From the NCBI RefSeq assembly GCF_017744255.1, contig NZ_JAGHQP010000006.1:62001-126000 (forward strand): a stretch of DNA of 64,000 bases, written 5' to 3'. Source of the DNA: Brevundimonas sp. A19_0. Its GTDB lineage: Bacteria; Pseudomonadota; Alphaproteobacteria; Caulobacterales; Caulobacteraceae. Shown here one piece after another: positions 25,875 through 40,479 of the stretch. The notes beneath the pieces are model-generated. The model worked only from the letters and a program-made list of their open reading frames with translations. It was not told the DNA's origin and ran no database searches. Position 1 is the first letter of the stretch, and every line of letters starts with the position of its first letter. The position numbers and the translations under genes were made by a program.

Positions 25875-26876
25875 TTAGCCTCTTTCGCCCTCGGAGGGCT
25901 CGCGGCCGGCCCGCATGGGCTCAGGGGCCGCATCGTCCAACGTGACGGGGGGCCGGGCGCGGATCGGTCCTTCGCCCGATCGCGCCGCGTCGCCGCCGTC
26001 GTCGAGGGAGGCGGCGCTGATGATCGCCCGAAACTCGTCGACCAGTTCGGGATGCCGGGTGGTCAGGTAACGCTCGATGTGGGCGTTGGCCAACAGTCGG
26101 TTGAGGTAGCCGCTGGCGACGACGAGATGCAGGACGTCGTCCCCGTAGGACGCCTCGATCGCCCGGAAGTCCTGCGTCAACGACGCCATCTCCCGCTCCA
26201 TGCGCGCCATCTGCTCAGAGGTCATGCCGCCGACGCGCTTGGGCTTGTCCTGGCGCACGAGGTCGGCCTGACGGGTCGCGGCCAGCAGCGCCTTGGCGTA
26301 GGCGGAGGTGAAGTTGTTCGCCGACAGCATCAGCTCGGCCGCCTCCACCTGTCGCATCGGCCGCATCTTGCGCAGTACGTCGAAGGTCACCGGATTGACC
26401 GTATGGTTTTTCAGCAGCTCGACGACCTCGGGCGCAACGCCCTCCAGCAGGCTGCGGCGGCGCTTGATCGCCTTGACGTCCACATCGAGGGCCTTGGCCA
26501 GCTTCTCCTCGGACACCCCGCGCTCAAGGGCGCGGACGATCATGTAGTGTTCCTGGATGGTCGCCAGCCGGTTGACCCGCCGGTTGTAGGTGAAGGCCTC
26601 GTCGTCGTCGGCGACCAGACAGCGGGTCTCGGTCTCGCCCAGGTCTTTCAGGATCGCCAGCCGGACATGCCCGTCGAGCAGCATCCAGGCGCCGGGTGAT
26701 TTGGGTCGCGCCACCACGAGCGGCTCGATGATCCCGACCTCGGCCACCGACCGGGCTATGCGGCGATACTTGACCGAGCGGATGACCTCGTCGGCGAGCC
26801 GTCGCAGCGGCAGGATGTCCGAAAGGCGGAGGGTCTCGAGGCGGGTCTCGAACGCCGCCCTGACGGTCTCCGTCAT
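25875..26876 (-). CDS. RepB/ParB-like protein 2 of the recombinase operon
   Basis: The 333-residue protein has a ParB-like N-terminal domain ('MLLDGHVRLAILKDLGETETRC' about residues 65-86) and a helix-turn-helix region 'EEKLAKALDVDVKAIKRRRSLL'. Its C-terminal part belongs to the RepB type ('NPVTFDVLRKMRPMRQVEAAELM'). It begins 1 nt after the stop of RepB-like protein 1 and so belongs to the same operon as the serine recombinase. Acidic and Arg-rich residues fill the tail. Function as a partition protein is uncertain without a ParA. Confidence 0.8.
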   Translation of the reverse strand: MTETVRAAFETRLETLRLSDILPLRRLADEVIRSVKYRRIARSVAEVGIIEPLVVARPKSPGAWMLLDGHVRLAILKDLGETETRCLVADDDEAFTYNRRVNRLATIQEHYMIVRALERGVSEEKLAKALDVDVKAIKRRRSLLEGVAPEVVELLKNHTVNPVTFDVLRKMRPMRQVEAAELMLSANNFTSAYAKALLAATRQADLVRQDKPKRVGGMTSEQMARMEREMASLTQDFRAIEASYGDDVLHLVVASGYLNRLLANAHIERYLTTRHPELVDEFRAIISAASLDDGGDAARSGEGPIRARPPVTLDDAAPEPMRAGREPSEGERG

Positions 26877-26877
26877 G

Positions 26878-27759
26878 TCAGCGGCCCGCGGCGCCGAGGC
26901 GCTCGGCGAGCGGCCGCGGCAGGGTGTGCATGGACTCGGCGCGCAGCAGGGTGACGAAATGGTCGTCGTCGAGCAGTCGGCGCAGGGCGTTGACGACGAA
27001 GACCAGGCGGCTCTGGGTCAGGGCGGCCTTCTTGACGAGCAGTTTCTGCCGGTCCGCCTCCTTGCGGTAGGCCCGCACCAGGGCGTCGGCGGTCACGCGG
27101 ACCCGCGGCCCGCCGCCTTCCCGGGCCCCGGAGCGTCCCGCCTTGCCGCTGGTCTTGCGCTGTTCGATGATCTTGCGGATGGCCAGCACCTGGTTGCCGG
27201 GCAAGGCCTTGCGCTCATAGGCCTCCGCCAGGGCCTCCTGGACCTCGCGGTCGCCGGCCCTGGCGATCTCCATGGCGACGGTATGGGGGATGACGCCGCG
27301 CTCGACGGCCGCGATCAACCGATCCTCGCCATTGTCGAGCAGGAAGCAGATCGCCCAGATGTATTCGGCGCTGAAGTCGGTCTTGGTCGCGATCTCCTGG
27401 GTCGAGTAGCCCCGGTCCTTAAGGGCCCCGATCTCCCGGACCAGCTCCAGCGGCCGATGCTGCCGCCGGGCGAGGTTCTCGACCAGACTCATCACGAAGC
27501 AGTCCTCCGCGGAGGCCAGCGTGACCACGGCGGGGATCTCCGCCTGCCCCAGGGCCACGAAGGCCTCCAGCCGGCCCTGCCCGCAGATCAGGTCGTAGCC
27601 GCCGTCGGGACGGGCGCTGACGGTGATCGGTTTCTTCAGGCCGAGGTTGGCGATGCTGGTGACCAGTTCCTGGAATACCCGCTTGTTGCGCGAGCGCGGG
27701 TTCAACACGGTGATCGCCGCCACCGGGATGCTGCGGATCTCAGGCGCGGCGTCGGTCAT
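26878..27759 (-). CDS. RepB/ParB-like protein 1 of the recombinase operon
   Basis: The ATG at 27759 overlaps the recombinase stop (ATGA) and gives 293 residues. The ParB-like domain (about 15-100) has 'NPRSRNKRVFQELVTSI' and 'LICGQGRLEAFVALGQ', with 'VMSLVENLARRQHRPLELV' after it. A helix-turn-helix 'TQEIATKTDFSAEYIWAI' follows. It is co-translated with the recombinase and with a second relative downstream, so the two ParB-like proteins may form a complex that loads on DNA near the recombinase site. That idea is inference. Confidence 0.82.
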   Translation of the reverse strand: MTDAAPEIRSIPVAAITVLNPRSRNKRVFQELVTSIANLGLKKPITVSARPDGGYDLICGQGRLEAFVALGQAEIPAVVTLASAEDCFVMSLVENLARRQHRPLELVREIGALKDRGYSTQEIATKTDFSAEYIWAICFLLDNGEDRLIAAVERGVIPHTVAMEIARAGDREVQEALAEAYERKALPGNQVLAIRKIIEQRKTSGKAGRSGAREGGGPRVRVTADALVRAYRKEADRQKLLVKKAALTQSRLVFVVNALRRLLDDDHFVTLLRAESMHTLPRPLAERLGAAGR

Positions 27760-29321
27760 GCCGCCACGCGGATCGCGGCCCGCCGGGTGAGATCGAAGAA
27801 GGGCTCGAGGCCGTCGAAGCGGAAGGCGTCGAGGAAGACGCCGTTCGCCTCGCCCATGCGCACCTTGCCCATCGGCCCGACGTCGAGCCAGGGCAGCAGG
27901 TAGTAATCCCGCACGTCGGCGTTGGCCGCGTCCATGCGCACGGCGATGGTGATATCCGGCTTGAGGCTGGAGTCCAGCCGGACTTTCCAGCGCAGTCCGC
28001 CGGCGGAGGTCCGCGAACAGCGGATGACGGTGATGGAGACGCTGAACTCCTGGTTCACGGTGAGCAGGTCGGTGGCGGGATCGACCACCACCGAGCCGCC
28101 CAGGCGCTCGATCTGGGCGATGGCGCCGGCGACCACCTCGGGGTGCAGCGCCCGTAGGACGCGGTTGGTTTCGAGGAACCGGTAGTCGCGGTCCGGCGAA
28201 TAGCCGACCAGCGCATAAGCCCGCAGCAGCGTCCCGAAGCGCTGGCGGTAGGTCGAGCTCGACGGCATGTCCTCGACCTCGTCGATCAGCAGCCCGGACA
28301 GGCAGCCCTTCTCGCCGAGGAGCACCGTCAGCCGGTCCAGCAGCTGCTCGTCGGTGAACCGGCGCGTGCGGTCGGCGATGATCCGCTGGGCGGCGGCGAA
28401 GAACTCGGGATCTACGATGCCGTCGAAGACGCCGTCCGCCCGCACCCACATGTCGGGCGCGTTGAGCACCCGCTTCTTCTTCAGCTTGAAGGAGACGCGG
28501 TTGTAGACGTTGTTGCCGATGTATTTCTCGTTGGTCAGGACCTGGTGCACGGTCCCGCGCGTCCACGGCCGGCCCAGGTCGGTCAGGACGCCCTCACCGT
28601 TGAGCAGGACGGCGATCTCGCGCTCGGAGCGCCGCTGCAGCACGAACATCCGGTAGATTCGCTGGACGACGTCGATCTCCTCCTGCGGGCCGGCGGTGAG
28701 GATGACGCGATCGGTCTGCAGGCTCTTGTGTTCGCCGCGATCGAGCAGGGCCTTGGGCCGGCGCTGCTCGTCGACGAGCTGACGGCGCAGTCCGAATCCG
28801 GCCGGCCCGCCCTGGCGGTAGCCGAGGCTGATCAGACGACACTGGCCCGTGAACACCTTGGCCGACAGCTCGCGGCTGTATTCGCCGGCCATGGCCCGCT
28901 TCATGCCCTTGATGATGGTGGCCGTCAGGCTGCCGTCGTTCTCGAACTGCTCGGCGCAATAGTGGATGCTGATCCCGGCCTCGCGGCACAGGTACTCGTA
29001 GTAGGCGCTCTCGTCGGCGTCCTGGAAGCGGCCCCAGCGGCTCACGTCGTAGACCAGGATGACCTTGTAGTCGGCGCGCCCCGCCTGGACGTCGGCGAGC
29101 AGTTGCTTGAGCGCCTCGCGGCCGTCGATCCGGAGGCCGCTCTTGCCTTGGTCGGCGTAGGTCCGGACGATCTCGAAGCCGCGCCGCTCGGCGTAGGCCT
29201 GGATGATGTCGGCCTGGTTCTCGGTCGAGTATTTCTGATGCTCGGTCGACATACGGACGTATTGCGCCGCGCGTACAGGGGCGCGGTCGGCGACGTTCGG
29301 ATCGGACTCCCAACGGCTCAT
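27756..29321 (-). CDS. Large serine recombinase
   Basis: The ATG at 29321 gives 521 residues. The resolvase-type N-domain has 'QYVRMSTEHQ' with catalytic Ser25 and 'VYDVSRWGRFQDAD' with the usual active-site arginine. The recombinase domain follows ('GPAGFGLRRQLVDEQ', 'VLTDLGRPWTRGTVHQVLTNEKYIGN'). The usual zinc-ribbon cysteines of large serine integrases are absent; the region around 'GLLIDEVEDMPSSSTYRQRF' replaces it. Such enzymes integrate or invert DNA. It leads an operon with two ParB-like genes and is divergent from a small helix-turn-helix gene. Confidence 0.85.
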   Translation of the reverse strand: MSRWESDPNVADRAPVRAAQYVRMSTEHQKYSTENQADIIQAYAERRGFEIVRTYADQGKSGLRIDGREALKQLLADVQAGRADYKVILVYDVSRWGRFQDADESAYYEYLCREAGISIHYCAEQFENDGSLTATIIKGMKRAMAGEYSRELSAKVFTGQCRLISLGYRQGGPAGFGLRRQLVDEQRRPKALLDRGEHKSLQTDRVILTAGPQEEIDVVQRIYRMFVLQRRSEREIAVLLNGEGVLTDLGRPWTRGTVHQVLTNEKYIGNNVYNRVSFKLKKKRVLNAPDMWVRADGVFDGIVDPEFFAAAQRIIADRTRRFTDEQLLDRLTVLLGEKGCLSGLLIDEVEDMPSSSTYRQRFGTLLRAYALVGYSPDRDYRFLETNRVLRALHPEVVAGAIAQIERLGGSVVVDPATDLLTVNQEFSVSITVIRCSRTSAGGLRWKVRLDSSLKPDITIAVRMDAANADVRDYYLLPWLDVGPMGKVRMGEANGVFLDAFRFDGLEPFFDLTRRAAIRVAA

Positions 29322-29398
29322 TAGGGGTTCTTCTCCCTCCAAACGTCTCACCTCCACCAAGCGGCGACGTCGCGACCAATAGGGGGGAGAGGCGCTGA

Positions 29399-29838: not shown

Positions 29839-31203
29839 TCACGCCGCCGCAGTGAAACCGGGGTTCAGGCGGCGGAAAGCGTCGCCGTGGGGCGAGGCGA
29901 GTCGGTGATCCACACCGAGCAGGTCCAGATCGATCAATCGATGCACAGGCCCCCCGTGCAGGAGCCGCAGCACCTCGGACAGGGCGAGAGTGGCGGCCAC
30001 CGCTCCGACGAACGGCGCGCCAACCGCCTTGCCGGCCAGGAGCGTCATGCCGCACCGATCGAGATCCCCATCGGTCAGGAGCTTCGTATAGGCCGGGCGG
30101 TCCTCGAGCGATTCAACCGCGCCCGCCGCTTTCCACATCTCGGCAGTGGGCCGCGCCCCCGGCAGGGTATGCAGCCGCATAGTGCGGTAGTCCCGGTGGC
30201 CCCGTCCCAGTCCCGCCTCCACGATCATGTCGAAGCCGACCTGATCGAGGGCCCGCCGGCCCGCCGCGTTGTCCAGCCCGCAGAGCGCGATCGCCGGCTC
30301 TCCGGGTTGACGGCTGAAGCCGGCGTCGAAGAACCGCTCCTGGATGGAGGTCTGGAACCCCCGCCGTTCAGCCCAGGCCGCCATGGCCCGCGTCTTCTTC
30401 TGCCCCACCATGGCCGCGTCCGTCAGGATCGAGGTGCTTTCGGTCGACGGCGTGATCGTATCGATGTCCTGGAGGACCAGCGAGACTTCGGCAGGGGACC
30501 GGTAGGGCAACAGACCGAGGCCCCACAGATAAGCCTGCCCCAAGTGTCCCAGGCCGATCAGCCAGAGCTGCGACGGCAGATAGGTCAGGGGCGGTTCTTG
30601 GGAGTCGGTGGGCAGCCAATCCACATCAGCGCCCGGCCGCCACAGGGAGAGACCGACGATCCGGCGTCCTGCCGCCTCCACGGCGCTGACATGCAGAAAG
30701 GCTTCGTTGACGGCGAGCGCCGCCGCCAGCATGCCGGCCAGCGGGTTCGCCGGTCCCGCCTCCGGCGTCTGGGAGGCATGCAGGGGCGCGATCCCGCCGC
30801 GCCAGCCGGCCGCCGCCGTGCGAATGCAAAACCCCTCACGACGCACTCCGCGCGGCCCGACCACGACGACCGGCGCGCCCGGAGCGCCATCTTCGACGCG
30901 ACCGCCGAGAGACCGGACCGCTTCGGCCAAGGTGCAGCCGAGCGGCAGGGGCGCGGTCAGGGACGTCTCCAGCGCGCCGCTGACCGAAACGCCGCCGAGG
31001 AAGACGCGACGACCCAGTGCGACGAGCGTCAGCAGAGTCGCTTGGCTGATCGGATCGCTGGGCTCGTCGGGACGGAATTCGACGGTGAGGCGAAAGCCCT
31101 GAAAGAGGGCCTCGGCTTCGGCGATGCTTTCGGCCGCACCGCTGTCGATCGCCTGTTTCACCAGACGGTGCAAAGACTCGGCGGGGACGTACTGGGTCAT
31201 CAC
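29839..31203 (-). CDS. bilD: BilD-type E1-like adenylyltransferase (ThiF fold)
   Basis: The 454-residue protein has a ThiF/E1 nucleotide-binding motif 'LIGLGHLGQAYLWGL' (GLGHLG at 217-222), a strand end 'VLQDID' (about 243-248) and a candidate catalytic Cys384 in 'DRCGMTLLAGKA'. E1 enzymes adenylate the C-terminus of a ubiquitin-like protein and pass it to an E2. It is the fourth gene of a run in the order ubiquitin-like, E2, JAB, E1, the order of bacterial bilABCD systems. The N-terminal 200 residues are an extra domain, as in other bacterial E1 proteins of this type. Tandem ATGs at the start leave a one-codon ambiguity. Confidence 0.85.
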   Translation of the reverse strand: MMTQYVPAESLHRLVKQAIDSGAAESIAEAEALFQGFRLTVEFRPDEPSDPISQATLLTLVALGRRVFLGGVSVSGALETSLTAPLPLGCTLAEAVRSLGGRVEDGAPGAPVVVVGPRGVRREGFCIRTAAAGWRGGIAPLHASQTPEAGPANPLAGMLAAALAVNEAFLHVSAVEAAGRRIVGLSLWRPGADVDWLPTDSQEPPLTYLPSQLWLIGLGHLGQAYLWGLGLLPYRSPAEVSLVLQDIDTITPSTESTSILTDAAMVGQKKTRAMAAWAERRGFQTSIQERFFDAGFSRQPGEPAIALCGLDNAAGRRALDQVGFDMIVEAGLGRGHRDYRTMRLHTLPGARPTAEMWKAAGAVESLEDRPAYTKLLTDGDLDRCGMTLLAGKAVGAPFVGAVAATLALSEVLRLLHGGPVHRLIDLDLLGVDHRLASPHGDAFRRLNPGFTAAA

Positions 31204-31209
31204 GCGCTC

Positions 31210-31728
31210 CTAGAGGCCGATGTGGAAGAAGGTGGAACGGGCTTCGGGGGCGACCGTCGCCCACCGCTTCGCCCCCAGATACCGGTAGATGCCGATGTCG
31301 CGTCGGGGCTGGGGCGATGAGGCGAAACGCGGCAGGATCAGTGCGATATGTCCGGCCCGCGAGATCATCGGATGGTCGCGATCGGAGGTGCTTTGCCCCG
31401 AACCGCCCGGATGAACATGAACGTCAGCGACCACCGACAGACCGCGGGCTTTGCACAGCCGCCAGAGTTCACCGAAATACCGGCCGTCAAATCGGACGAT
31501 GCCGCTGTCGAGACAGTGGGGATCCAGGTCGTCGTAGAGGACGAAGTCGACGACGCGCCGCCGCCCGTCCACCTGACGACCGAGCAGGAAGGCGCCGCTT
31601 TCGCGGCTGCTGTTCCGGCCACGCTGCCGCAACGCCCGGCGCAGGCGTCCCCACAGGAACCAGGAACAGGACAGTTCATGCCGCGGCGCGAAGAGGCGGC
31701 GCATAGTCTCGGCAATGGAGAAGTTCAT
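31210..31728 (-). CDS. bilC: BilC-type JAB/MPN+ deubiquitinase-like peptidase
   Basis: From the ATG at 31728 the product is 172 residues. It has the JAMM metalloprotease motif: Glu in '[10 protein letters not shown]' and '[15 protein letters not shown]', which gives the H-x-H and downstream Asp that bind zinc. JAB enzymes in such systems remove or process ubiquitin-like modifiers. The gene overlaps the E2 gene by 53 bp; a later in-frame ATG would shorten this to 29 bp. It is followed after 6 bp by the E1 gene. Confidence 0.84.
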
Positions 31729-32158
31729 GGACGAGCTCCAGATACTGAACGACGCCGGTGGCCGGGCGCCAGATTTTCGAGGGCATCTCATGACGCCAGT
31801 TGTCGTGGCCGGCGAAGCTTTCGCGGTCACAGGGCAGGTACAGGGCGGTGCCGTTCTTCCAGTCCGTCCGGAACACAGCCGAGACGCGCCCTCCCTGCCC
31901 GCGGGGCCAAAGATCGAACGCAAGGATCTGGTCGCGTTCGATGTCCCAAGGCCCCCCCGTCGGCGCTGTCTGCGGGTAGCCTGAGCAGTTCAGCCGGAGC
32001 ACGTACTCGCGTCCGTCCATGGCCGTCACGCCGATGAAGGCGTGCGGCCAGCGGACCTCGATCAACCGCCACCGCCCCTCGGCCTGGCCGAGGCGGAACG
32101 TGGCTCGCGCCACGTCCGCCTCGAACGCCCGTTGGTCCGGCCCGATCACCGCTCCCAT
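31676..32158 (-). CDS. bilB: BilB-type E2-like conjugating protein
   Basis: The 160-residue protein reads as an E2 fold: a central '[19 protein letters not shown]' (about 53-71), like the Y-P-x-x-P stretch of E2 enzymes, and then '[13 protein letters not shown]' with Cys110 as the likely thioester cysteine. It lies between the ubiquitin-like and JAB genes, overlapping both. The family is divergent from eukaryotic E2s, so assignment relies on fold pattern, size and context. Confidence 0.8.
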
Positions 32159-32655
32159 CCGGGCGCGCCGTTGACCCGCTCGTCGGCGACGAGGTCGAAG
32201 GCGAGCGCGCAGGTCTTGCGGTTCGTCAGCGAGCCGATGTGGGTTCCCGGCGCCGGCCGCTCGTGCGTGCCCGAGATCTGGAGCACGTGTTCACCCGCCT
32301 CCTCGGCGGTCATGCCGAACTTGCGTTCCGCCGCCCACCGCTTGACGCGCGCCACCGTCGCGCCGGGGGCGAACTTCCGATCGGCGGTTTCGCCGTTGAA
32401 GGTCACGCTGACCTCGACGTGGCGGCAGCGGTTCAGGTGGACCTTGAGCCCCTTGTCGCTGGCGCGCTCCTTGATCTTTGCCTCGTCGTCGAGCGGGTCG
32501 TCCTCGTCTTCGACGAACAGCAGGGCGTCCGGTCCGATCCCGTGCTTCTCGGCGAGCAGGGCCTTGAGGGTGGCGAAGGTGGCCTCGGCGTCGATCTCGA
32601 GGTGCTCGATCTCGCCGACCCCTTCGCCCTGGTAGAACAGATCGATGGTCTTCAT
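32146..32655 (-). CDS. bilA: BilA-type protein with two ubiquitin-like domains
   Basis: The 169-residue protein appears to contain two beta-grasp units, about residues 1-75 ('[18 protein letters not shown]', 'LLAEKHGI', 'GLKVHLNRC') and 77-160 ('[17 protein letters not shown]', '[13 protein letters not shown]'). Tandem ubiquitin-like domains recall ISG15, as in BilA. The C-terminus ends 'NGAPGWER', which would be the tail joined to targets after processing. A Bil system conjugates this modifier to phage structural proteins. The gene is first in the operon and overlaps the E2 gene by 13 bp. Confidence 0.82.
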
Positions 32656-32761
32656 GGGTTCACACTCCGGGGATCGAGGTGTGAGGCCCTATTGCCCCGC
32701 TTTCGTCCCTTACCTCCCTGATCGGAGGCCGGGCGCGAATCCGGAAAGCCGAGGCGGCGAT

Positions 32762-35700
32762 CTAGCTCAGATCGAGCTTCCCTCGCGGCGTGGCGGCGCA
32801 GATGAAGAAATGGGGACAGCGCGGACAAGTGACCACGTCGGTCTCGATCGGAAAGTCCCCGGCGGCGATCCCCGCCAGCATGGTTTCGCTCTTTGTCTTG
32901 CGGTTGCTGAGCTTGGTGGGCGAGATCGCGACCGGCTCAGCCGCCTCGTCGGTCAGGTGCAGCGCCTGGACGACAACGCCGGCGCCGAACTGAGCCTCGG
33001 CCGCCAACTGATAGAGCGTGTATTCGAGGCGATCGTATTCATCGCTTCGTTTGTGGCCGGTGCGGACCCGGCGAACAACGACCGTACCGTCCGACAGTTC
33101 CGCCAACTCGTTCGGCTCGACCAGAACCCGACCGTTCGCGAAATCGATCGCCAGCGGTTCGGATTCGCGGAATCGGCGCCCCGCGCCGGCATTGACCAGG
33201 GCCGCGATCAAGCGGGTCGCCAGCCGTCGATAATCAGCGGCGAAGGCGTGATCGACGGGCCCGCGCACCGTCCATATGGCCGCAAAAGCCGCTTCCGCTT
33301 CAGCGAGCGTCGGGCTCGAGGTCCGCCGCGCGTCAGCCAACCAGCGAAGGAGTTCGTACAGACAATCGTGGGTGCGCGAGAAGGCGGTGGGTTTGCGCGC
33401 CCCGCCCAGACCGAGGACATGCGTATAGAAGAACCGTCGAGGACACTTCTCATAGGCTCCAAGCCGACTGTCGGTCAGCGTCCAGTCCTCGGGCCAGGTG
33501 ACGCGGATCGACGACGGGCCTAGCGCCCCGCCCGGCGGGGGCGACACCGCGGGCCGGGCGACCTCTTGCACCAAGCCCTTGGGCAGCCAGTCCAGGTAAG
33601 GCGACGCCGACCGGTTGTTGCCGTTCGGCTGCCTGCGGGCGAGATAGAGCCGCAGATGTGTCCGCGCTCTGGAGAGGCCGACGAAGAACAGGCACTGCTC
33701 CTCGTGCTCATGGGCCCGTTTCGCCTCGTCTGCGGGTGACAAGGCCTCCGTCCCCTCGATCATCCCGATCGGCGCCGGACAGCGTTGGCCGCGGTTGGAG
33801 GCCGGAAAGCTGGAGACTGTAAGACCTGGCAGATGGACGGCCTCGAACTCCAGACCCTTGCTGCCATGGACGGTCATAAGCCGGACCGCATTCAAGTGCA
33901 GCGCAGCCGCCGGCACCTGCCGAAGATCCCGCTCCTCAGCCAAGAGCACCAACTGGCGCACACGGTCGAGCGTCCGCTGAATCGGCAGTCCGCCGCCGAC
34001 CGGGCTCTGCTCGCGCACGAAGTTGAGGAACTGCCATATCGCGACCGCACGCATCCGTTGGGTGACGCTCATCGCGGCGCCCAGGCGACGGCCCAAGTCC
34101 GTTCGGTCGAGAATATAGGTGGAGAGAAACGCCCACGCAGACGTGTTGGTCGTCAAACCTGCCAAATCGGCCGCCAGCCGGGTGATCGCCTCACGGCCAG
34201 CCGGCGAAAGGCCGGTCGCGCCGGCCGCGTCGCCAAGGCCCGTCAGCGCCGGCCGGCCGGCCGCCCGAAGATGACGTGAGACCACGGATACGTCCTGAAG
34301 GCTGAGGTCATACCGCGGCATGGCGCCGACGCGCACCAAGGCGTCGCCGAAGGGATCGATCGCCAGGCTGAGCAGCGCCAACAGATCGCGCACATCTTCA
34401 CGTTCGAAAAGGCTTCCAAGGTGAAGGACGGGGATATCGCGGGCTTCGAGCGCGGCGGCGATGTCATTGAGCCGATTGTTGGAGCGGCAAAGCACCGCTT
34501 GATCGCGCAGCGGCACGCCCGCAGCCTCGAGTTCTCGAATGCCGGCGGCGACGCCCGCAGCCTCGTCGTCGAGCGTCTCGAACCGCCTCACTTCGGGATG
34601 GCTTGTCCCCTCACCCCGGTCCGCCTCCAGCGCCAAAGGCAACATGCCTGCCGAGGCGCCCATGCGCGGCGCAGTCGCGACGAACGTCTGTACGATCTGC
34701 TCGGTGGAGCGGTAATTGACGCCGAGCTGATCGACGACAGCCTTTGGATAGTCTTCCCCGAAACGCGCCATGTTGGCCGAGGAGGCCCCTCGAAATCTGT
34801 AGATCGATTGCCGGGAGTCGCCCACCACCCAGAGACGCTCGCCGTCACCCGCCACGGCTTTCAGAAGACGCGCGCTGGCCCGGTTGACGTCCTGGTATTC
34901 ATCTACGAGCACATGACGATGGCGCAGTTGAACCGCCATCCGCAGCGCCGTGTCTTCCTCCAGCAAACGGGCTGGGCGCATGATCAGATCGCCGAAATCC
35001 ACGCCTCCATGCTGGGTTTTGGCCGCCTCATAGAGATCGTAGATGTCGGCGATCTCCAGACATTTGGAAGCAGCCGTCTGGGCGGCCTCGTCGTCGCCGG
35101 CCGCCTCCCGCATCGCGGTCGCCAAGGCGCGATAGCGTGTCGGGTCCGCCATCTCGTCCTTGGCGCGCGAGATGGCCGCGACCACATCGCGCAGCACCAT
35201 CGCCGGGTCCCACAAGTTCCGATAGTGAACCAACGGCAGGGTCGGGAGGATCTCTTCGAGCAACGCGATTGCATCGCTTCGATCAAACAGGGCCGGATCA
35301 GGAGACAAGCCTAGGCGATCGTGATGCCGCCGCAACAGGTCGAGCCCGAAGGCGTGAAAGGTGCCGATCCACAGACGCGGTGCAGCGTCCGGCATAGCCA
35401 TCGTCAGGCGTTCGGAGAGTTCGCCCGCCGCACGGTTCGAAAACGTCAATATGAGCGTGGCTGCGGGATCGATGCCATCGGCCAGGAGCGACGTCACGCG
35501 TTTAACCAGTGTTCTCGTCTTGCCCGTGCCTGGCCCGGCCTGAAGTTGGAAGGGCGAGCCTCGGTGAGCCGCGGCCCGGTCCTGGGAGGGGTCAGGGCGC
35601 GGAACGTGGGTCGATGCCGGCGCCGCGTCCGCCGACTCGAATGGGGGAAGCAGAAGTGCGTCAAAGAGCTGCTGGCGAACCAGAGCAAGCGGAAGGCCCG

Positions 35701-36190
35701 TGCGGGTCGCGATGTCCGTCGCGCCGAGACCATCGATGACATGCAGGCGTCTGGCGAGGGGGCGCGACAGGACGAATTCGCGCGCAAAGACGTTTGCCTG
35801 GAGCTCACGCCGTTCTCGCGCTCCATAGTCTTCGACACGCTGAAGGCCGACCGGCGCGGCCTCTGTGGACCGGGTCGCATCGATGTCGGACGAGGCGCAC
35901 GTCGCGGACCCTGCATGCAGACGGGCGTGGCCGATCTCATGAGCCACCAGTAGGGCGCGTGCGACCTCGTCGCCGGCCGTCTCGCAACAGATCGTGCCGC
36001 TCTGGTCGTCATACAGCGCACGGGCCCCCTTCAGCGCGGGGTCGCCGGCAGCGAGCCACACCAGTTCCAAGTCGAGAGCCTTAGCCCCGGCTTGCACGAA
36101 GGCGAACGGGTCGAGCGGATCGGCGCCCGTCTCCACCAGCACATCGTGAAGCGCTGCGGCATCGGACCGAATTGGATCGAACGGGTCCAT
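32762..36190 (-). CDS. ImmA/IrrE peptidase-UvrD-type helicase-Cas4-like fusion
   Basis: The 1142-residue protein has three parts. Residues about 30-180 are an ImmA/IrrE (M78) peptidase with HEIGH at 84-88 and Glu in 'RELQAN' (129-133). Residues about 200-880 are a superfamily 1 helicase with Walker A AGPGTGKT at 218-225, Walker B VDEYQD at 429-434 and later 'VGDSRQSIYRFRGA', 'MTVHGSKGLEFEAV' and 'FVGLSRAR'. Residues about 905-1142 resemble a Cas4/AddB nuclease with Cys916 and Cys1122, Cys1125, Cys1131 for an Fe-S cluster. The nuclease core reads 'VVVRRVRTG' (about 1037-1045) where 'V-D-Y-K-T-G' is usual, so it may be inactive. It ends a three-gene operon. Confidence 0.85.
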   Translation of the reverse strand: MDPFDPIRSDAAALHDVLVETGADPLDPFAFVQAGAKALDLELVWLAAGDPALKGARALYDDQSGTICCETAGDEVARALLVAHEIGHARLHAGSATCASSDIDATRSTEAAPVGLQRVEDYGARERRELQANVFAREFVLSRPLARRLHVIDGLGATDIATRTGLPLALVRQQLFDALLLPPFESADAAPASTHVPRPDPSQDRAAAHRGSPFQLQAGPGTGKTRTLVKRVTSLLADGIDPAATLILTFSNRAAGELSERLTMAMPDAAPRLWIGTFHAFGLDLLRRHHDRLGLSPDPALFDRSDAIALLEEILPTLPLVHYRNLWDPAMVLRDVVAAISRAKDEMADPTRYRALATAMREAAGDDEAAQTAASKCLEIADIYDLYEAAKTQHGGVDFGDLIMRPARLLEEDTALRMAVQLRHRHVLVDEYQDVNRASARLLKAVAGDGERLWVVGDSRQSIYRFRGASSANMARFGEDYPKAVVDQLGVNYRSTEQIVQTFVATAPRMGASAGMLPLALEADRGEGTSHPEVRRFETLDDEAAGVAAGIRELEAAGVPLRDQAVLCRSNNRLNDIAAALEARDIPVLHLGSLFEREDVRDLLALLSLAIDPFGDALVRVGAMPRYDLSLQDVSVVSRHLRAAGRPALTGLGDAAGATGLSPAGREAITRLAADLAGLTTNTSAWAFLSTYILDRTDLGRRLGAAMSVTQRMRAVAIWQFLNFVREQSPVGGGLPIQRTLDRVRQLVLLAEERDLRQVPAAALHLNAVRLMTVHGSKGLEFEAVHLPGLTVSSFPASNRGQRCPAPIGMIEGTEALSPADEAKRAHEHEEQCLFFVGLSRARTHLRLYLARRQPNGNNRSASPYLDWLPKGLVQEVARPAVSPPPGGALGPSSIRVTWPEDWTLTDSRLGAYEKCPRRFFYTHVLGLGGARKPTAFSRTHDCLYELLRWLADARRTSSPTLAEAEAAFAAIWTVRGPVDHAFAADYRRLATRLIAALVNAGAGRRFRESEPLAIDFANGRVLVEPNELAELSDGTVVVRRVRTGHKRSDEYDRLEYTLYQLAAEAQFGAGVVVQALHLTDEAAEPVAISPTKLSNRKTKSETMLAGIAAGDFPIETDVVTCPRCPHFFICAATPRGKLDLS

Positions 36191-36194
36191 CGAC

Positions 36195-36857
36195 CTATAG
36201 CGCCAAAAGGGCGCGTTGCTGGTCCTCGGTCAGTCCCGAGCTTCGCACTGCGTCTTTGAACGTCTGTCGCCCACCATCGGTAGGCTTCCCGTCGGCCTTG
36301 AAGAACTGCGAACGCGCGCCAACGCCCTGAGCGGCCGCGAAATGTGCGACCACAACCTCCAGCGGCGCATGTAGATCATTGGCGACGCGTTGCCGAAATC
36401 CGGATGTGAGCGTGTCGGGGTCAATCTGCCGATCGCGCAATTTGGCGACGAACACGCTGTTAACGTCGAGCCGTCTCGCAAATCCACGAAACTCCTCGCG
36501 GCTGAGCGCCGAGAAAGGATTGACTGCGGCGGTGGACGGACGGTCAGTCGCTACCGCGGAGGCACGTCCCATCGTCTCGGCGTGTAGTCGGTTCTGGTAG
36601 CGGCTCATAGCGCGGGCGACCGCTGGGCTTACGGTCGTGGGGTCTAGCGCGGCCTCTGCCGCCTCGAGTACGCATTCACCGCGCAATGCATCAATCGCGA
36701 TCGCGATCGCATAGTCCGTAAGTTCGTCGCCGAACTGCGGAAAACGGCGCACAAGATCGTCGAGAAGATTGGCGTTCGGCACGGTCTCCGCGGTCGACAG
36801 CGCATAGAGCGCATCGCGCAAGCCAGGTGGTGGGTTGGCGGTAAGTGTGGGGGTCAT
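36195..36857 (-). CDS. Unknown protein between the sigma-like gene and the peptidase-helicase
   Basis: The 220-residue protein has an N-terminal helical domain (about 10-85) and, after a linker, 'NPFSALSREEFRGFARRLDVN' and 'FVAKLRDRQIDPDTL', a compact helical region near residues 115-150 that could be a helix-turn-helix-like domain. The C-terminus ends in 'GLTEDQQRALLAL'. Its start overlaps the stop of the sigma-like gene (ATGA), and it ends 4 bp before the peptidase-helicase ATG. ImmA/IrrE peptidases usually cut a regulator encoded beside them, so this protein or the sigma-like one may be the substrate. That is inference. Confidence 0.7.
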   Translation of the reverse strand: MTPTLTANPPPGLRDALYALSTAETVPNANLLDDLVRRFPQFGDELTDYAIAIAIDALRGECVLEAAEAALDPTTVSPAVARAMSRYQNRLHAETMGRASAVATDRPSTAAVNPFSALSREEFRGFARRLDVNSVFVAKLRDRQIDPDTLTSGFRQRVANDLHAPLEVVVAHFAAAQGVGARSQFFKADGKPTDGGRQTFKDAVRSSGLTEDQQRALLAL

Positions 36858-37633
36858 AGGTCCTCCTTAAATCGGGAGAGCTTCGCCGCCGCCCGTTTCA
36901 GTCGGTTGCGGATCGTTCGTCCCGTGCAGTTGCAGCGCGTTGCAGCGGTCTCTTCATCCGGATCATCCGACTCCTCCTGGTAGCCGAGGGCGTGGACCAG
37001 AATGACTGCGTCGCGCTCGTCCGTGGGCAAGGCTAGGATCGCATCTTCCAGTTCAGACCGGAAAGCGATGCTCTCCTGTGTCGCCGGCGACTGGAACGCT
37101 TCGGAAACGCGTGCGAACACATCTTCCCGCGGGTCAGCGTCCTCTTCGTCAGTCGGTTGGGGCAGATCGACCGCTGGCTTCAGGCGAGCGATCTCCTGGC
37201 GAACGATATCAATCCGGAAAAATCGGAAAGCTCGGTTGAACTTGCATTCGTAGAAGTCGAGTTCGTCGGGCGCGGCGCCGTGATCGTCGCTGGCGAAGAG
37301 TTCGCTGAACTGCCCTAGAATCTCTTCACGAACGCTGGCCGCTTCAGGGAGTTGGCCGTCTGGAACCTTCACGAGCAGATTGGCTTCACAGCGCCCGAGC
37401 AAAACGGGCAATGCCGCCCCGATCAGAACCTGATCGCCGACCCGCCGGGCGTGTCGAACGAGATGGACCAGGGTTTCGGAGCGCAGATGCTGGGGATGCT
37501 GACGGTCAGTGATAACCAACCGGACCCGAAGGGCCGACAGATCGAGAGCGATGGCTTCATCAATCTGCGCCTCGATGGCCTTCGGTCGGATCAAGGGGCC
37601 CTTGTCACCCGATTTCGTTAGCGGTCGAGCCAT
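36854..37633 (-). CDS. Sigma-70-like regulatory protein
   Basis: The 259-residue protein ends with a region-4-like helix-turn-helix (about 205-259): 'AILALPTDERDAVILVHALG', then 'EETAATRCNCTGRTIRNRL' and 'KRAAAKLSRF'. The middle contains 'NRAFRFFRIDIVRQEIARL', which may be a region-2-like helix. It is the first gene of the operon with the unknown protein and the ImmA-helicase. Sigma factors or sigma-like adaptors controlled by a peptidase would allow stress-triggered expression; that role is inferred. The N-terminal region is unusual for a standard ECF sigma factor, so promoter recognition is not assured. Confidence 0.72.
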   Translation of the reverse strand: MARPLTKSGDKGPLIRPKAIEAQIDEAIALDLSALRVRLVITDRQHPQHLRSETLVHLVRHARRVGDQVLIGAALPVLLGRCEANLLVKVPDGQLPEAASVREEILGQFSELFASDDHGAAPDELDFYECKFNRAFRFFRIDIVRQEIARLKPAVDLPQPTDEEDADPREDVFARVSEAFQSPATQESIAFRSELEDAILALPTDERDAVILVHALGYQEESDDPDEETAATRCNCTGRTIRNRLKRAAAKLSRFKEDL

Positions 37634-37843
37634 CCTGCCCCTTGCCTCATGCAGCGCCGGTTATGAGCGTCCGTGAAGCCCGCTCGTCGTCGCTGATCGC
37701 GTCGGGGCAGAAAATCCGGAAAGTCGATTTTTGCTTTTCTTGTTTTTCTACGCTAACGCCGATTCCGCCCTCGGCGAGAGTCGTTCACCGATCATACTCA
37801 TGCCAAGAGCGCTCGGATAGATTGCAGGACCGGCGACAAGAAA

Positions 37844-38008: not shown

Positions 38009-38317
38009 ATGCTCGCTTTCAATGACCAGATCAGCCCGCTCGATGAGCGCAGCACGGAACGGATGAACTTCCGGACCAAGCCGCACATCAAGCAAACCAT
38101 TCAGCGCGCCGCGGCCTTGGCCGGCGTGGACGACTCCGTGTTCACGATGAACGCGGCCTACCAGTCGGCCCGCGAGACCATCGAAGCGCATGAGCGCACG
38201 ATCCTGGCTCCGCTGGACCATGCGGCGTTCTTCGCCGCCATGGACGCGCCCCCGGCTCCCACGGACAAACTCCGTGCGGCCTTCGCCCGTCACCGTGAGA
38301 CGGTCGCCAGTCGGTGA
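38009..38317 (+). CDS. DUF1778 antitoxin (TacA-type)
   Basis: The 102-residue protein has an N-terminal ribbon-helix-helix part ('TERMNFRTKPHIKQTIQRAAALAG', about 16-39, read as strand then helix) and a C-terminal helical tail that would wrap the toxin. DUF1778 antitoxins neutralise GNAT toxins that acetylate aminoacyl-tRNA. The start follows a clear GGAGG at 5 nt. Its stop overlaps the toxin's GTG start (GTGA). A palindromic operator lies in the promoter. Confidence 0.88.
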   Translation: MLAFNDQISPLDERSTERMNFRTKPHIKQTIQRAAALAGVDDSVFTMNAAYQSARETIEAHERTILAPLDHAAFFAAMDAPPAPTDKLRAAFARHRETVASR

Positions 38318-38868
38318 GCGCTGGCGAAGCTGACGCCCTGAACATCGTTGAGCCGTTCGATCCTGAGACCCATGATCGGACGGCTTTTTCCTGCGGCATC
38401 GAACAGGTCGACAACTTCTTCAAGAAGACGGCGAACAAGCTGTCCAAGGCCGACAATCTGCGCGTCTGGGTAATGACCGACCCCAAGGGCGCTCTGATCG
38501 GCTTCTACGCCACCAACGCCCACAGCGTCGATTACCAGGACCTCCCGCCCAAATACGCGCGGACCCGCCCGGGCCACGGCCAAATTCCCGCCGCCTATAT
38601 TTCGATGATCGGGGTGGATCAGCGCTTTCAAGGCCAAGGCTATGGCGGCGACCTGCTGATCGATTGCCTGCGCCGCCTCGCCCAGGCCAGCGAGGCGCTC
38701 GGCGTCGCCGTGGTGATGCTGGACGTGCTGGACTGCGGCGACCCCAAACAGGTCGAGCGGCGGTTGGCGCTCTATAAGGGATACGGGTTCGAACCCCTTC
38801 CCACCAACCCGCTGCGCCTGTTCCTGCCCATGGCGACAGTGAAGACGCTGATCGCTGAAGAGACGTAG
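38314..38868 (+). CDS. GNAT acetyltransferase toxin (TacT-type)
   Basis: The 184-residue protein has the acetyl-CoA-binding motif 'QRFQGQGYGGDLL' (QGQGYGG at about 106-112) and the C-terminal 'YKGYGFEPL', as in TacT toxins. These toxins acetylate the amino group of charged tRNAs and stop translation. The GTG start at 38314 overlaps the antitoxin stop, so the two are coupled. It is probably a stability module for the element. Length and motifs are complete. Confidence 0.88.
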   Translation: MSAGEADALNIVEPFDPETHDRTAFSCGIEQVDNFFKKTANKLSKADNLRVWVMTDPKGALIGFYATNAHSVDYQDLPPKYARTRPGHGQIPAAYISMIGVDQRFQGQGYGGDLLIDCLRRLAQASEALGVAVVMLDVLDCGDPKQVERRLALYKGYGFEPLPTNPLRLFLPMATVKTLIAEET

Positions 38869-38979: not shown

Positions 38980-39269
38980 ATGGTTCAAGCCGACCCGCCC
39001 CTTCGCCGGACGATCAAGAAGACCCAGCTCCGCCAGATGGTGCCGCTGGCTGACAGCACCATCTGGGAAATGGAGCGGCGCGGCCAGTTCCCAAGCGCTT
39101 CCTCCTAACGCCGCGCTGCGTGGTCTGGGATCTCGCCGAGGTCGAGACCTGGCTGGCCTTGCGCCGGGCGCAGCCCATCCCCCGCGCCGCGCCCCCCGAC
39201 GTCCACAAGCGGCTGGCGCGGCCCGTCAGAGGCGCGGATCGAAGCGAGGGCCCGCCGCTTCCGGGATGA
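38980..39269 (+). pseudogene. AlpA-like excisionase/regulator gene, frameshifted
   Basis: The frame from the ATG at 38980 reads 'TIKKTQLRQMVPLADSTIWE' and 'MERRGQFP', the helix-turn-helix start of AlpA proteins, and then stops at 39106-39108. The next frame continues exactly where AlpA proteins do: 'KRFLLTPRCVVWDLAEVETWL' up to a stop at 39269. One missing base near 39,090-39,093 explains this. AlpA-like proteins control integrase expression or act in excision. Loss would leave the integrated element hard to excise, unless another factor serves or the base is a sequencing error. The tail overlaps the convergent integrase gene by 44 bp. Confidence 0.72.
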
Positions 39270-40479
39270 CCAGGACGGGCGTGTAAGCCCTACCCTCTTC
39301 CCAGGCCTCGACGGCGTTCGACCACTCCTGGGCCATGTGCCGACGCTGCGCTTCGAACTCAGCCTTGTTGTAGACGCCGCGCGAGGAGCGCTCCTCGTGG
39401 GCCAGGCACTTCTCGATCCAGTCCGAGTTGAAGCTCATCTCGTGAAGCAGGGTCGAGGCCGTCCGGCGAAGGTCGTGCACCGTGAAGGGCTCCAGCGGCA
39501 GACTCTTCTCCCGCGCCCGCTCGGCGATGGCGGTGGTCACCCGGTTGAAGGTCGCCCGCGACATCGGCGCGTCGGCGTCGTAGCGCGAAGGCAGGATGTA
39601 GCGGGAGTTGCCGGCGCAGGTCTTCAGCGCGATCAGGATGTCCAGCATCTGGGTCGACAGATAGACGTTGTGCGGCCGGGAGCGCTTCATCCGCGCCTTC
39701 GGGATCGACCAGACGGCGTTCTCGAAGTCGACCTCGTCCCAGGTTCCGTCCTGAAGCTCGCTCTTGCGCACCATGCTGAGCAGGATGAACTTCAGCCCCA
39801 ACCGGATGGTCGGCAGTGTGGCGACGTCACCGAGCAGGCCCAGCATGATGCGGATCTCGGCCGGCGACAGCGACCGGTCCCGCGGACGGAAGGTCGCGAT
39901 CGACGCCGGGCCGACCCCATCGGCCGGATTGTCGATCTTCTCGCCATGCAGGATGGCCCAGGCGTAGATCTGCTTGACGATGTCGCGGACGTGGATGGCG
40001 GTCGCCGGCGCCCCGCGGTCGACGATGGTCTTGCAGTGCGCCCGCAGGTCGTCGGGCGTGATCTCGCTCAGCAGCCGGCTCCGCCAGGTCGGCAGCACCT
40101 CGCGATTGAAAATGGCGCGCCGCATGTTGCGGGTGCTGTCCGCCATAGGCGCATGATCCATCCACTTCTGCGCCACGATGCCGAAGCTCCGCGCCTCCTT
40201 CAGGCGGCGTTTGGCGCGCTGCTTCTCCAGGGCCGGAGACACCCCGTCGGCGATCAGTCGCTTCGCTTCGATCACCTTTTCCCGCGCCTTTGCGAGCGAC
40301 AAACCGGCAGGCCCATAGGAGCCGAAGGTCACGGTCTCCCGCCGGCCATTGAAGCGGTAGTCGTAGCGAAATGCGATCCCGCCGGCGGGCGAAACCAGCA
40401 CGTACAAACCGTCCCTGTCGGTCATTTTGTAAGGCTTTGATTTCCCGCGGATATTCCGCAACGCAGCGTCCGTAAGCAT
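39226..40479 (-). CDS. Tyrosine-type site-specific integrase (P4 family)
   Basis: The 417-residue protein has the DUF4102 arm-binding N-domain ('MLTDAALRNIRGKSKPYKMTD', 'FGSYGPAGLSLAKAREK') and the catalytic set Arg238 ('MVRKSEL'), His335-x-x-Arg338 ('HDLRR'), His361 ('LAHEE') and Tyr370 ('GVYNKAEF'). These are complete, so the enzyme looks functional. It lies next to guaA with its gene pointing away from it, which fits integration at the guaA 3' end. Possible arm sites are the ATACCGTCA boxes at 40,497-40,652. The frameshifted AlpA gene is convergent and overlaps its 3' end. Confidence 0.92.
   Translation of the reverse strand: MLTDAALRNIRGKSKPYKMTDRDGLYVLVSPAGGIAFRYDYRFNGRRETVTFGSYGPAGLSLAKAREKVIEAKRLIADGVSPALEKQRAKRRLKEARSFGIVAQKWMDHAPMADSTRNMRRAIFNREVLPTWRSRLLSEITPDDLRAHCKTIVDRGAPATAIHVRDIVKQIYAWAILHGEKIDNPADGVGPASIATFRPRDRSLSPAEIRIMLGLLGDVATLPTIRLGLKFILLSMVRKSELQDGTWDEVDFENAVWSIPKARMKRSRPHNVYLSTQMLDILIALKTCAGNSRYILPSRYDADAPMSRATFNRVTTAIAERAREKSLPLEPFTVHDLRRTASTLLHEMSFNSDWIEKCLAHEERSSRGVYNKAEFEAQRRHMAQEWSNAVEAWEEGRAYTPVLVIPEAAGPRFDPRL

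What the first reader, a model, noticed from the sequence alone, without database searches (positions are those of the whole stretch)
32762..37633. Three-gene operon: sigma-like factor, unknown partner, ImmA/IrrE-helicase-Cas4-like giant protein
The three genes are tightly coupled (ATGA overlap, then a 4-bp gap). They join a sigma-70 region-4-like protein, an unknown helical protein and a protein with M78 peptidase (HEIGH, 84-88), SF1 helicase (AGPGTGKT, VDEYQD) and an Fe-S nuclease-like end (Cys916, 1122, 1125, 1131). ImmA/IrrE peptidases are known to cut a neighbouring regulator after DNA damage or phage entry. A helicase that senses DNA and a peptidase that releases a sigma-like protein would make a new type of damage- or phage-triggered switch. 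I know of no described system with this set.
Basis: partly seen in the sequence, partly recalled or inferred. Interest (0 to 1): 0.88.

Follow-up and report, generated by a model that had tools for sequence, protein, structure and literature searches.

The report
Sigma-factor switch for bacterial ubiquitin-like immunity
Three linked genes (a transcription-starter protein, a small partner and a giant helicase-peptidase) sit in front of bacterial ubiquitin-like defence operons and look like a DNA-sensing switch that turns those defences on.

Summary
A genome scan found 326 relatives of the giant protein C; 80 were kept. A and B lie upstream of C in 73 of 77 assessable loci. Of 63 loci with whole C and enough downstream sequence, 59 continue into a ubiquitin-like cassette (Bil or multiubiquitin), one into CBASS, three into nothing recognised. 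In an evenly drawn class sample, 10 of 11 assessable cassettes without A-B-C have an HTH + ImmA/IrrE (CapH/CapP-like) controller instead. A is predicted to fold like a diverged ECF sigma factor. A promoter-like element, TTTCCGG-N16-CGATC, lies before A, before bilA and inside gene A. C keeps all peptidase and helicase residues checked in 86 of 86 copies, but its Fe-S nuclease-like domain has lost the catalytic acid in 86 of 86. Best model: C senses foreign or damaged DNA and cleaves B (or an A-B complex), freeing sigma factor A to transcribe the defence operon. Controller role well supported, sigma step fairly; trigger and cleavage target are inferred. I found no printed description.

The parts
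36854..37633 (-). gene A, 259 aa: diverged ECF-like sigma factor (predicted sigma2-like domain about residues 46-157, sigma4 184-259)
36195..36857 (-). gene B, 220 aa: small helical partner with an XRE/Cro-like HTH fold suggested at 109-180; candidate anti-sigma factor or repressor
   Evidence: weak fold matches only
32762..36190 (-). gene C, 1142 aa: ImmA/IrrE (CapP-like) peptidase + UvrD-type SF1 helicase + Fe-S PD-(D/E)XK-like domain without catalytic residues
35666..36025 (-). C: M78 peptidase domain (residues 56-175), HEIGH at 84-88, conserved E129 and E138
33557..35590 (-). C: UvrD/PcrA-type helicase (about residues 201-878)
32798..33475 (-). C: PDDEXK_1-like domain (residues 906-1131), Fe-S cysteines kept, D-x-K lost
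37694..37723 (-). promoter-like element CTTTCCGGATT-N13-CGATCA, about 90 bp upstream of A
37037..37064 (-). same element (TTTCCGG-N16-CGATC) inside gene A, about 180-207 bp upstream of B
32719..32748 (-). same element in the C-bilA gap, about 93 bp upstream of bilA
32146..32655 (-). bilA, ubiquitin-like protein
   Evidence: PDLC03844 E 1.5e-61
31676..32158 (-). bilB, E2-like
   Evidence: PDLC03845 E 7.2e-64
31210..31704 (-). bilC, JAB deubiquitinase-like (ORF reaches 31923; the profile match starts at residue 74, so the true start is probably near 31704)
29839..31203 (-). bilD, E1-like
   Evidence: PDLC03847 E 2.2e-168

Best explanation
A-B-C is a regulatory switch for the ubiquitin-like defence operon behind it. 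A is an ECF-like sigma factor held inactive by B. C is an ATP-driven DNA helicase carrying a CapP/IrrE-type metallopeptidase. When C meets foreign or damaged DNA (single-stranded DNA in the CapP and PprI precedents) its peptidase cleaves B, or the A-B complex, and frees A. A then starts transcription at up to three like promoters: before A (more switch), inside gene A (more B and C: inhibitor and sensor, a likely brake) and before bilA (the defence). Shown here by computation: operon structure, conserved linkage, replacement by HTH + ImmA/IrrE controllers, intact peptidase and helicase motifs, lost nuclease motif, repeated promoter-like element. Supported by prediction: A is a sigma factor. 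Inferred: B as inhibitor and cleavage substrate, DNA as trigger, order of events. My odds by step: controller of the adjacent operon 0.85; A drives the promoters as a sigma factor 0.75; DNA is the trigger 0.6; B is the substrate 0.5.
For: Linkage: A+B upstream of C in 73 of 77 loci; 59 of 63 assessable loci run into a Ubl cassette, one (L091) into CBASS. Separate even draw over the phylum: C in 6 of 398 genomes, 6 of 6 with A-B-C-Ubl. Replacement: in the class sample, 16 assessable cassettes: 5 have A-B-C, 10 an M78 peptidase protein (with an HTH gene beside it, read by eye, or fused), 1 neither; four further plasmid cassettes without A-B-C also have M78. Peptidase: best PDB match CapP 7t5t E 5.3e-4, then IrrE and a PprI ortholog. 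Sigma: Sigma70_r4_2 in 55 of 61 A proteins, PF07638 ECF family in 8 of 61; fold search top hits are ECF sigma factors, and isolated sigma-E region 2 chains align with residues 46-157 (4lup: Z 7.5, 2.7 A, 89 of 91); in Methylobacterium the A slot holds another sigma70-ECF-like protein (TIGR02937 over 24-178, E 7.6e-5). Promoters: element 2 times in the window (0 in 100 shuffles) and 2 times in the 2.92 Mb genome (reversed control 0); in 41 of 62 C-cassette gaps (0.07 expected) and 28 of 89 A upstream regions (0.05 expected); inside A in 53 of 91 (0.73 expected under synonymous recoding); 0 sense hits in 308,538 bases of C coding sequence; none upstream of 16 cassettes that lack A.
Against: No experiment. 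Foldseek has no E <= 0.001 for A, Z 7.5 for the sigma2 part is inside the range that helical bundles reach by chance, and the PDB sequence profile of A matches only the sigma4 end. B has no significant match of any kind. In multiubiquitin-type loci the element is not found upstream of A in the strict form. The looser pattern TTWCCGG-N15-17-CGATY has 7 places in the genome, 4 of them elsewhere. In G533 (L033) both strict hits lie outside the locus. The match of the -35 third base between internal and cassette elements (27 of 27) needs only 1 change on the tree, so it is one event. L014 has A, B, Bil and the element but no C. L122, L123, L148, L091 and L165 have A-B-C without the strict element. 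Cassette type is stable on the C tree (3 changes), so exchange is rare.
Confidence: 0.6

Rival explanations
1. CapH/CapP-like repressor switch: B is the DNA-bound repressor (XRE-like HTH), C cleaves B when it meets DNA, and A is an accessory activator or co-repressor rather than a true sigma factor.
For: HTH + M78 pairs stand in the same place in cassettes that lack A-B-C. The B model shows an XRE-like domain; the ImmR DNA-binding domain is among its weak matches, Z 4.8.
Against: The shared element is asymmetric with constant 15-17 bp spacing, as expected for -35/-10 boxes and not for a dimer operator. A has sigma4 and a sigma2-like fold.
Confidence: 0.2
2. C is an effector: the helicase-peptidase attacks phage DNA or proteins, or supplies substrates to the Ubl machinery, with A and B regulating only C.
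For: C is a large ATPase with every catalytic residue of both enzymes kept. UvrD-like proteins are effectors in other defence systems (GajB profile, E 1.1e-66).
Against: The nuclease motif is dead. Cassettes work in nature with only HTH + M78 in its place. The internal promoter groups C with B.
Confidence: 0.12
3. Independent DNA-repair or element-maintenance module that merely travels with defence genes.
For: UvrD-PDDEXK fusions are repair-like. Many loci are on plasmids (100 PLSDB records match C) and the window has an integrase and a serine recombinase nearby.
Against: 59 of 63 assessable loci run directly into a Ubl cassette, usually within about 120 bp. The element before the cassette is shared with A.
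Confidence: 0.05

Closest known systems
CapH + CapP (DNA-damage-activated controller of CBASS, also reported with Bub operons; PMC13373217, passages)
   Same: Upstream position, M78/ImmA-IrrE peptidase (best PDB match is CapP), HTH partner, same kinds of operon downstream
   Different: Peptidase fused to a UvrD helicase and an Fe-S domain; a sigma-like A and a small B replace the single CapH repressor; a sigma-type promoter element is present
CapW and CapK + CapS controllers (PMC13373217, passages)
   Same: Portable upstream controllers of Bub, Bil and CBASS operons that respond to ssDNA or DNA damage
   Different: Those are repressors without a peptidase; this one looks like an activator (sigma factor)
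PprI/IrrE-DdrO of Deinococcus (PMC10904395, abstract and passages)
   Same: HEXXH peptidase switched on by ssDNA that cleaves a transcription regulator
   Different: PprI has an HTH and a GAF-like domain, no helicase; the target DdrO is a repressor
ECF sigma / anti-sigma pairs (recalled)
   Same: Sigma gene followed by an overlapping gene for a small partner; autoregulated -35/-10 promoter with about 16 bp spacing; release by proteolysis
   Different: Known pairs mostly answer envelope or chemical stress; no helicase-peptidase sensor, no immune operon known to me
Bil (BilABCD) and polyUbl/multiubiquitin operons (PADLOC; PMC1779556 and PMC11354881, passages)
   Same: The genes downstream are these systems
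   Different: The passages I saw name no A-B-C component ('helicase', 'UvrD' and 'sigma' have 0 occurrences in PMC1779556; 'helicase' and 'sigma' 0 in PMC11354881)

Membership tests
ECF sigma factor (protein A) | sigma region 4 (-35 binding HTH) | tested here: met
   PF08281 26.0 bits vs cut-off 25.7; 55 of 61 members at E <= 0.01; VIA Z 9.5 to 2h27
ECF sigma factor (protein A) | sigma region 2 (-10 binding, core binding) | tested here: inconclusive
   Fold only: 4lup Z 7.5, 2.7 A, 89 of 91; 5or5 Z 7.6; 2map Z 7.6. No Sigma70_r2 among the 11 Pfam families listed for A6. PF07638 (ECF family) above cut-off over 18-167 in member L123
ECF sigma factor (protein A) | directs RNA polymerase to a cognate -35/-10 promoter upstream of its own gene | not testable with these tools
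   A fitting element is present; transcription not tested
CapH + CapP | M78 peptidase related to CapP | tested here: met
   7t5t E 5.3e-4; HExGH, E129 and E138 in 86 of 86
CapH + CapP | two-gene unit: stand-alone peptidase plus one HTH repressor | tested here: not met
   three genes; peptidase fused to helicase
CapH + CapP | ssDNA-activated cleavage of the regulator | not testable with these tools
   needs biochemistry
Bil system (downstream genes) | Ubl, E2, JAB and E1 genes in one operon | tested here: met
   BilA, BilB, BilC, BilD profiles E 1.5e-61, 7.2e-64, 1.5e-66, 2.2e-168
PD-(D/E)XK nuclease (end of C) | fold and Fe-S cysteines | tested here: met
   PDDEXK_1 E 4.5e-11; C916 in 86 of 86, the other three in 84 of 86 with 2 gaps
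PD-(D/E)XK nuclease (end of C) | catalytic D and D-x-K (recalled motif) | tested here: not met
   acid at the D-x-K position 0 of 86 (R 71); the AddB-like control in L009 keeps DYK at the aligned place (weak alignment)

The most novel reading that the evidence does not exclude
A sigma / anti-sigma immune switch: a helicase that inspects DNA is physically joined to the protease that frees a dedicated sigma factor. The sigma factor carries its own promoter inside its reading frame for the inhibitor and sensor genes, so one element at three places sets amplification, brake and defence. It would be a fourth class of immune-operon controller, and the first based on activation by a sigma factor known to me, controlling ubiquitin-like conjugation in several phyla.
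Probability: 0.5. Interest if true: 0.9.

Novelty: new variant of a known kind. Interest (0 to 1): 0.82.

Why it matters
How bacteria keep ubiquitin-like defence operons off until needed is an open question. PMC13373217 reports CapW or CapH+CapP at 219 of 544 Bub operons and CapK+CapS at 59; if those sets do not overlap, 266 have no named controller (whether Bub includes the multiubiquitin cassettes seen here I could not check). A-B-C offers a candidate that is easy to test: one sigma factor, one promoter element at three places, one peptidase and one helicase with known active sites. It would also join two fields, DNA-end sensing by helicases and regulated proteolysis of sigma inhibitors.

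Tried and rejected
Cas4/AddB-like nuclease as DNA cutter: rejected because the D-x-K acid is absent in 86 of 86 copies.

Phage-borne system: no hit in 50,697 phage records. Query B found nothing in viral contigs; query A4 gave 6 weak hits there, of which only L107 also has B next to the peptidase.

RNA hairpin before bilA: a conserved inverted repeat is visible in the alignment, but the window copy does not fold better than shuffles (z 0.53), and of three relatives two do (z -3.4, -2.2) and one does not (0.25). Left open.

Attachment site of an island: no tRNA in the window; direct repeats gave no clear pair.

Free exchange of cassettes: first suspected, but the C tree needs only 3 changes of cassette type. 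L026 (Bil cassette in the multiubiquitin clade) and L091 (CBASS) are the exceptions.

Co-variation of the -35 base as independent proof: 27 of 27 concordant, but one change on the tree, so dropped as such.

PDB search with the C end alone found nothing.

Rows dropped: 17 of 80 loci from the downstream count (broken C, C cut by the contig end, or under 1 kb downstream; L045, L055 and L064 among them do have a cassette), 3 of 80 from the upstream count. L052 is the same record as L007; the counts are not dereplicated. L163 seems to be the same contig as L098 (both 53,270 bases), so the five extra genomes are not all held-out. The shuffles were first-order Markov resamplings.
Full report
What is there. 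C carries an M78 (ImmA/IrrE) peptidase domain, a UvrD-type helicase and a PD-(D/E)XK-like end.

Conservation forward. The peptidase part of C, as an alignment of 17 proteins, found 326 relatives in genome contigs; the tool kept the best 80. With profiles built here, A and B are upstream in 73 of the 77 loci with at least 1.7 kb upstream (B alone in 76). Of 63 loci with a whole C and at least 1 kb downstream, 27 have Bil and 31 a multiubiquitin cassette. Of the other five, L088 has Multi_ubiq by Pfam, L091 a CD-NTase (SMODS, E 6.4e-12) and a patatin (E 2.2e-28), that is CBASS, and three Methylobacteriaceae loci have nothing recognised. An even draw of 398 genomes from the phylum gave C in 6, window included, each with A-B-C and a Ubl cassette. 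Besides proteobacteria the records name cyanobacterial, acidobacterial, planctomycete and verrucomicrobial sources, several of them MAGs.

Conservation in reverse. In an even draw of 385 genomes of the class, BilD occurs at 8 places in 7 genomes. Two places are a fragment or a short contig. Of the other six, three have A-B-C (window, L122, L123) and three an M78 peptidase, in L125 as its own gene and in L124 and L128 fused to an HTH. Multi_ubiq occurs in 10 genomes: two have A-B-C (L148, L153), seven a divergent gene pair with an M78 protein, its HTH neighbour read by eye, and one (L149) a RES-domain neighbour instead. So 15 of 16 assessable cassettes have one M78-based controller: 5 A-B-C and 10 CapH/CapP-like. 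Plasmid cassettes agree: L021, L022, L024 and L025 lack A-B-C and have M78. L023 (only bilD recognised) was not tested for M78, and L014 has A and B but no C. This replacement is the main reason to read A-B-C as a controller; [quoted passage not shown]

Protein C. The peptidase profile's best solved relative is CapP (7t5t, E 5.3e-4), then IrrE and a PprI ortholog. In 86 complete C proteins (83 different) HExGH, E129, E138 and the helicase motifs II, V and VI are present in all 86, as is the Walker A lysine; T222 is S in one and the motif IV N492 is S in seven. Cys916 is in 86, the other three cysteines in 84 with 2 gaps. The canonical nuclease motif D-x-K (recalled) reads R-x-R or similar: no acid at its first position in 86 of 86, while an AddB-like protein in L009 keeps DYK at the aligned place (the alignment is weak, E 0.0061 for a single comparison). 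C is therefore probably a DNA translocase and peptidase, not a nuclease. PprI is switched on by ssDNA and cleaves the repressor DdrO (PMC10904395, abstract and passages).

Protein A. Sequence shows only sigma region 4 clearly. The AlphaFold2 model (61 sequences, mean pLDDT 87.6) matches ECF sigma factors first in Foldseek (E 0.004-0.05, none at or below 0.001). In the second look, chains of isolated sigma-E region 2 align with residues 46-157 (Z 7.5-7.6, 2.7-3.8 A, nearly the whole chain). That Z is within the range helical proteins can reach by chance. Two sequence results help: member L123 matches the ECF family PF07638 above its cut-off over 18-167, and the Methylobacterium loci L063 and L096 hold in the A position another protein that matches the sigma70-ECF profile end to end, below its cut-off.

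Protein B. No family and no solved relative. The model (63 sequences, pLDDT 83.0) has an XRE-like HTH domain at 109-180 with weak matches only (best Z 6.6; Foldseek E 2.1 or worse). That it is an anti-sigma factor or repressor is inferred from position.

Promoter element. Upstream of A and in the C-bilA gap, relatives share TTTCCGG-N16-CGATC. The strict form CTTTCCGGNTT-N13-CGATCA occurs twice in the window against 0 in 100 shuffles, and the near-identical form searched genome-wide has the same two places in 2.92 Mb, with 0 for the reversed pattern. Over all loci the loose form is in 41 of 62 gaps (0.07 expected) and 28 of 89 A upstream regions (0.05 expected), both in 18 of 57; with up to one mismatch 52 of 62 (0.4) and 36 of 89 (0.8). 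None stands upstream of 16 cassettes that lack A; one unrelated hit lies about 7 kb away in L023. In 12 genomes of Bil-type loci the strict form is found as a pair about 5 kb apart in 8, once at the locus in 3, and only elsewhere in 1 (G533). In 8 genomes of multiubiquitin type the TTACCGGTY form is a pair 4.2 kb apart in 7 and absent in 1. The multiubiquitin pair led to a third site: inside gene A, at the codons for F/Y-R-x6-A-I before sigma4, 53 of 91 A genes carry the element with spacing 16, against 0.73 expected when codons are redrawn with the locus's own usage (rows are related, so this is not a probability). In the window it is 37037-37064. C coding sequence has 0 sense hits in 308,538 bases, and A has 0 antisense hits. 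The looser pattern has 7 places in the genome, 3 of them here.

Reading. A bipartite, asymmetric element with fixed spacing in front of a sigma-like gene, in front of the defence genes and in front of B-C fits an autoregulated sigma factor better than a repressor operator. Together with the CapP-like peptidase this gives the model in Best explanation. The trigger, the substrate and the order are not shown. The internal element would raise B and C when A is active, a plausible brake; this is inference.

Evolution. On a FastTree of 86 C proteins, cassette type (Bil, multiubiquitin, CBASS) needs 3 changes against a shuffled mean of 27: the association is old and seldom exchanged. L026 has a Bil cassette inside the multiubiquitin clade, and its bilA promoter has the TTACCGG form of that clade; the promoter may simply travel with C.

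Print. Ten searches of the open-access library gave no paper that describes A-B-C. Three papers that might (two by identifier, one EMBO J. DOI) are not held, so a mention there cannot be excluded.

Noticed in passing
37037-37064 (-) and 52 other A genes: A copy of the promoter element lies inside the sigma gene's own coding sequence, conserved far beyond what synonymous codon choice predicts.
   Followed up: yes
about 32660-32682 (-), C-bilA gap of Bil-type loci: A conserved inverted repeat just before bilA overlaps the likely ribosome-binding site; arms change together once in the alignment, but folding in the window copy is not better than chance.
   Followed up: partly
window 25875-29360 and L145 8101-11560: A serine recombinase (66% identical over 505 aa) followed by two ParB-like genes stands next to a Ubl cassette in both the window and another genome; possibly the mobile carrier.
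   Followed up: partly
L007, L019, L020, L026 (annotations); L088, L093 (read by eye): SbcD/YhaN-like DNA repair exonuclease + ATPase pairs recur beside A-B-C-Ubl loci.
   Followed up: no
L014 4656-10362: Cupriavidus locus with A, B, the promoter element and Bil, but C replaced by an inverted 295-aa gene without Pfam match.
   Followed up: partly
L063, L075, L096: Methylobacteriaceae loci keep B and C but have no recognised cassette; in L063 and L096 the A position holds a different sigma70-ECF-like protein.
   Followed up: partly
window 38009-38868 (+) and 39226-40479 (-): A TacA-like antitoxin / GNAT pair and a tyrosine integrase lie upstream of A; next to the integrase is an ORF that reads like GMP synthase (guaA; by eye): possible island boundary.
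   Followed up: no
L049, L045, L055: C is split or interrupted while neighbouring genes are kept.
   Followed up: no
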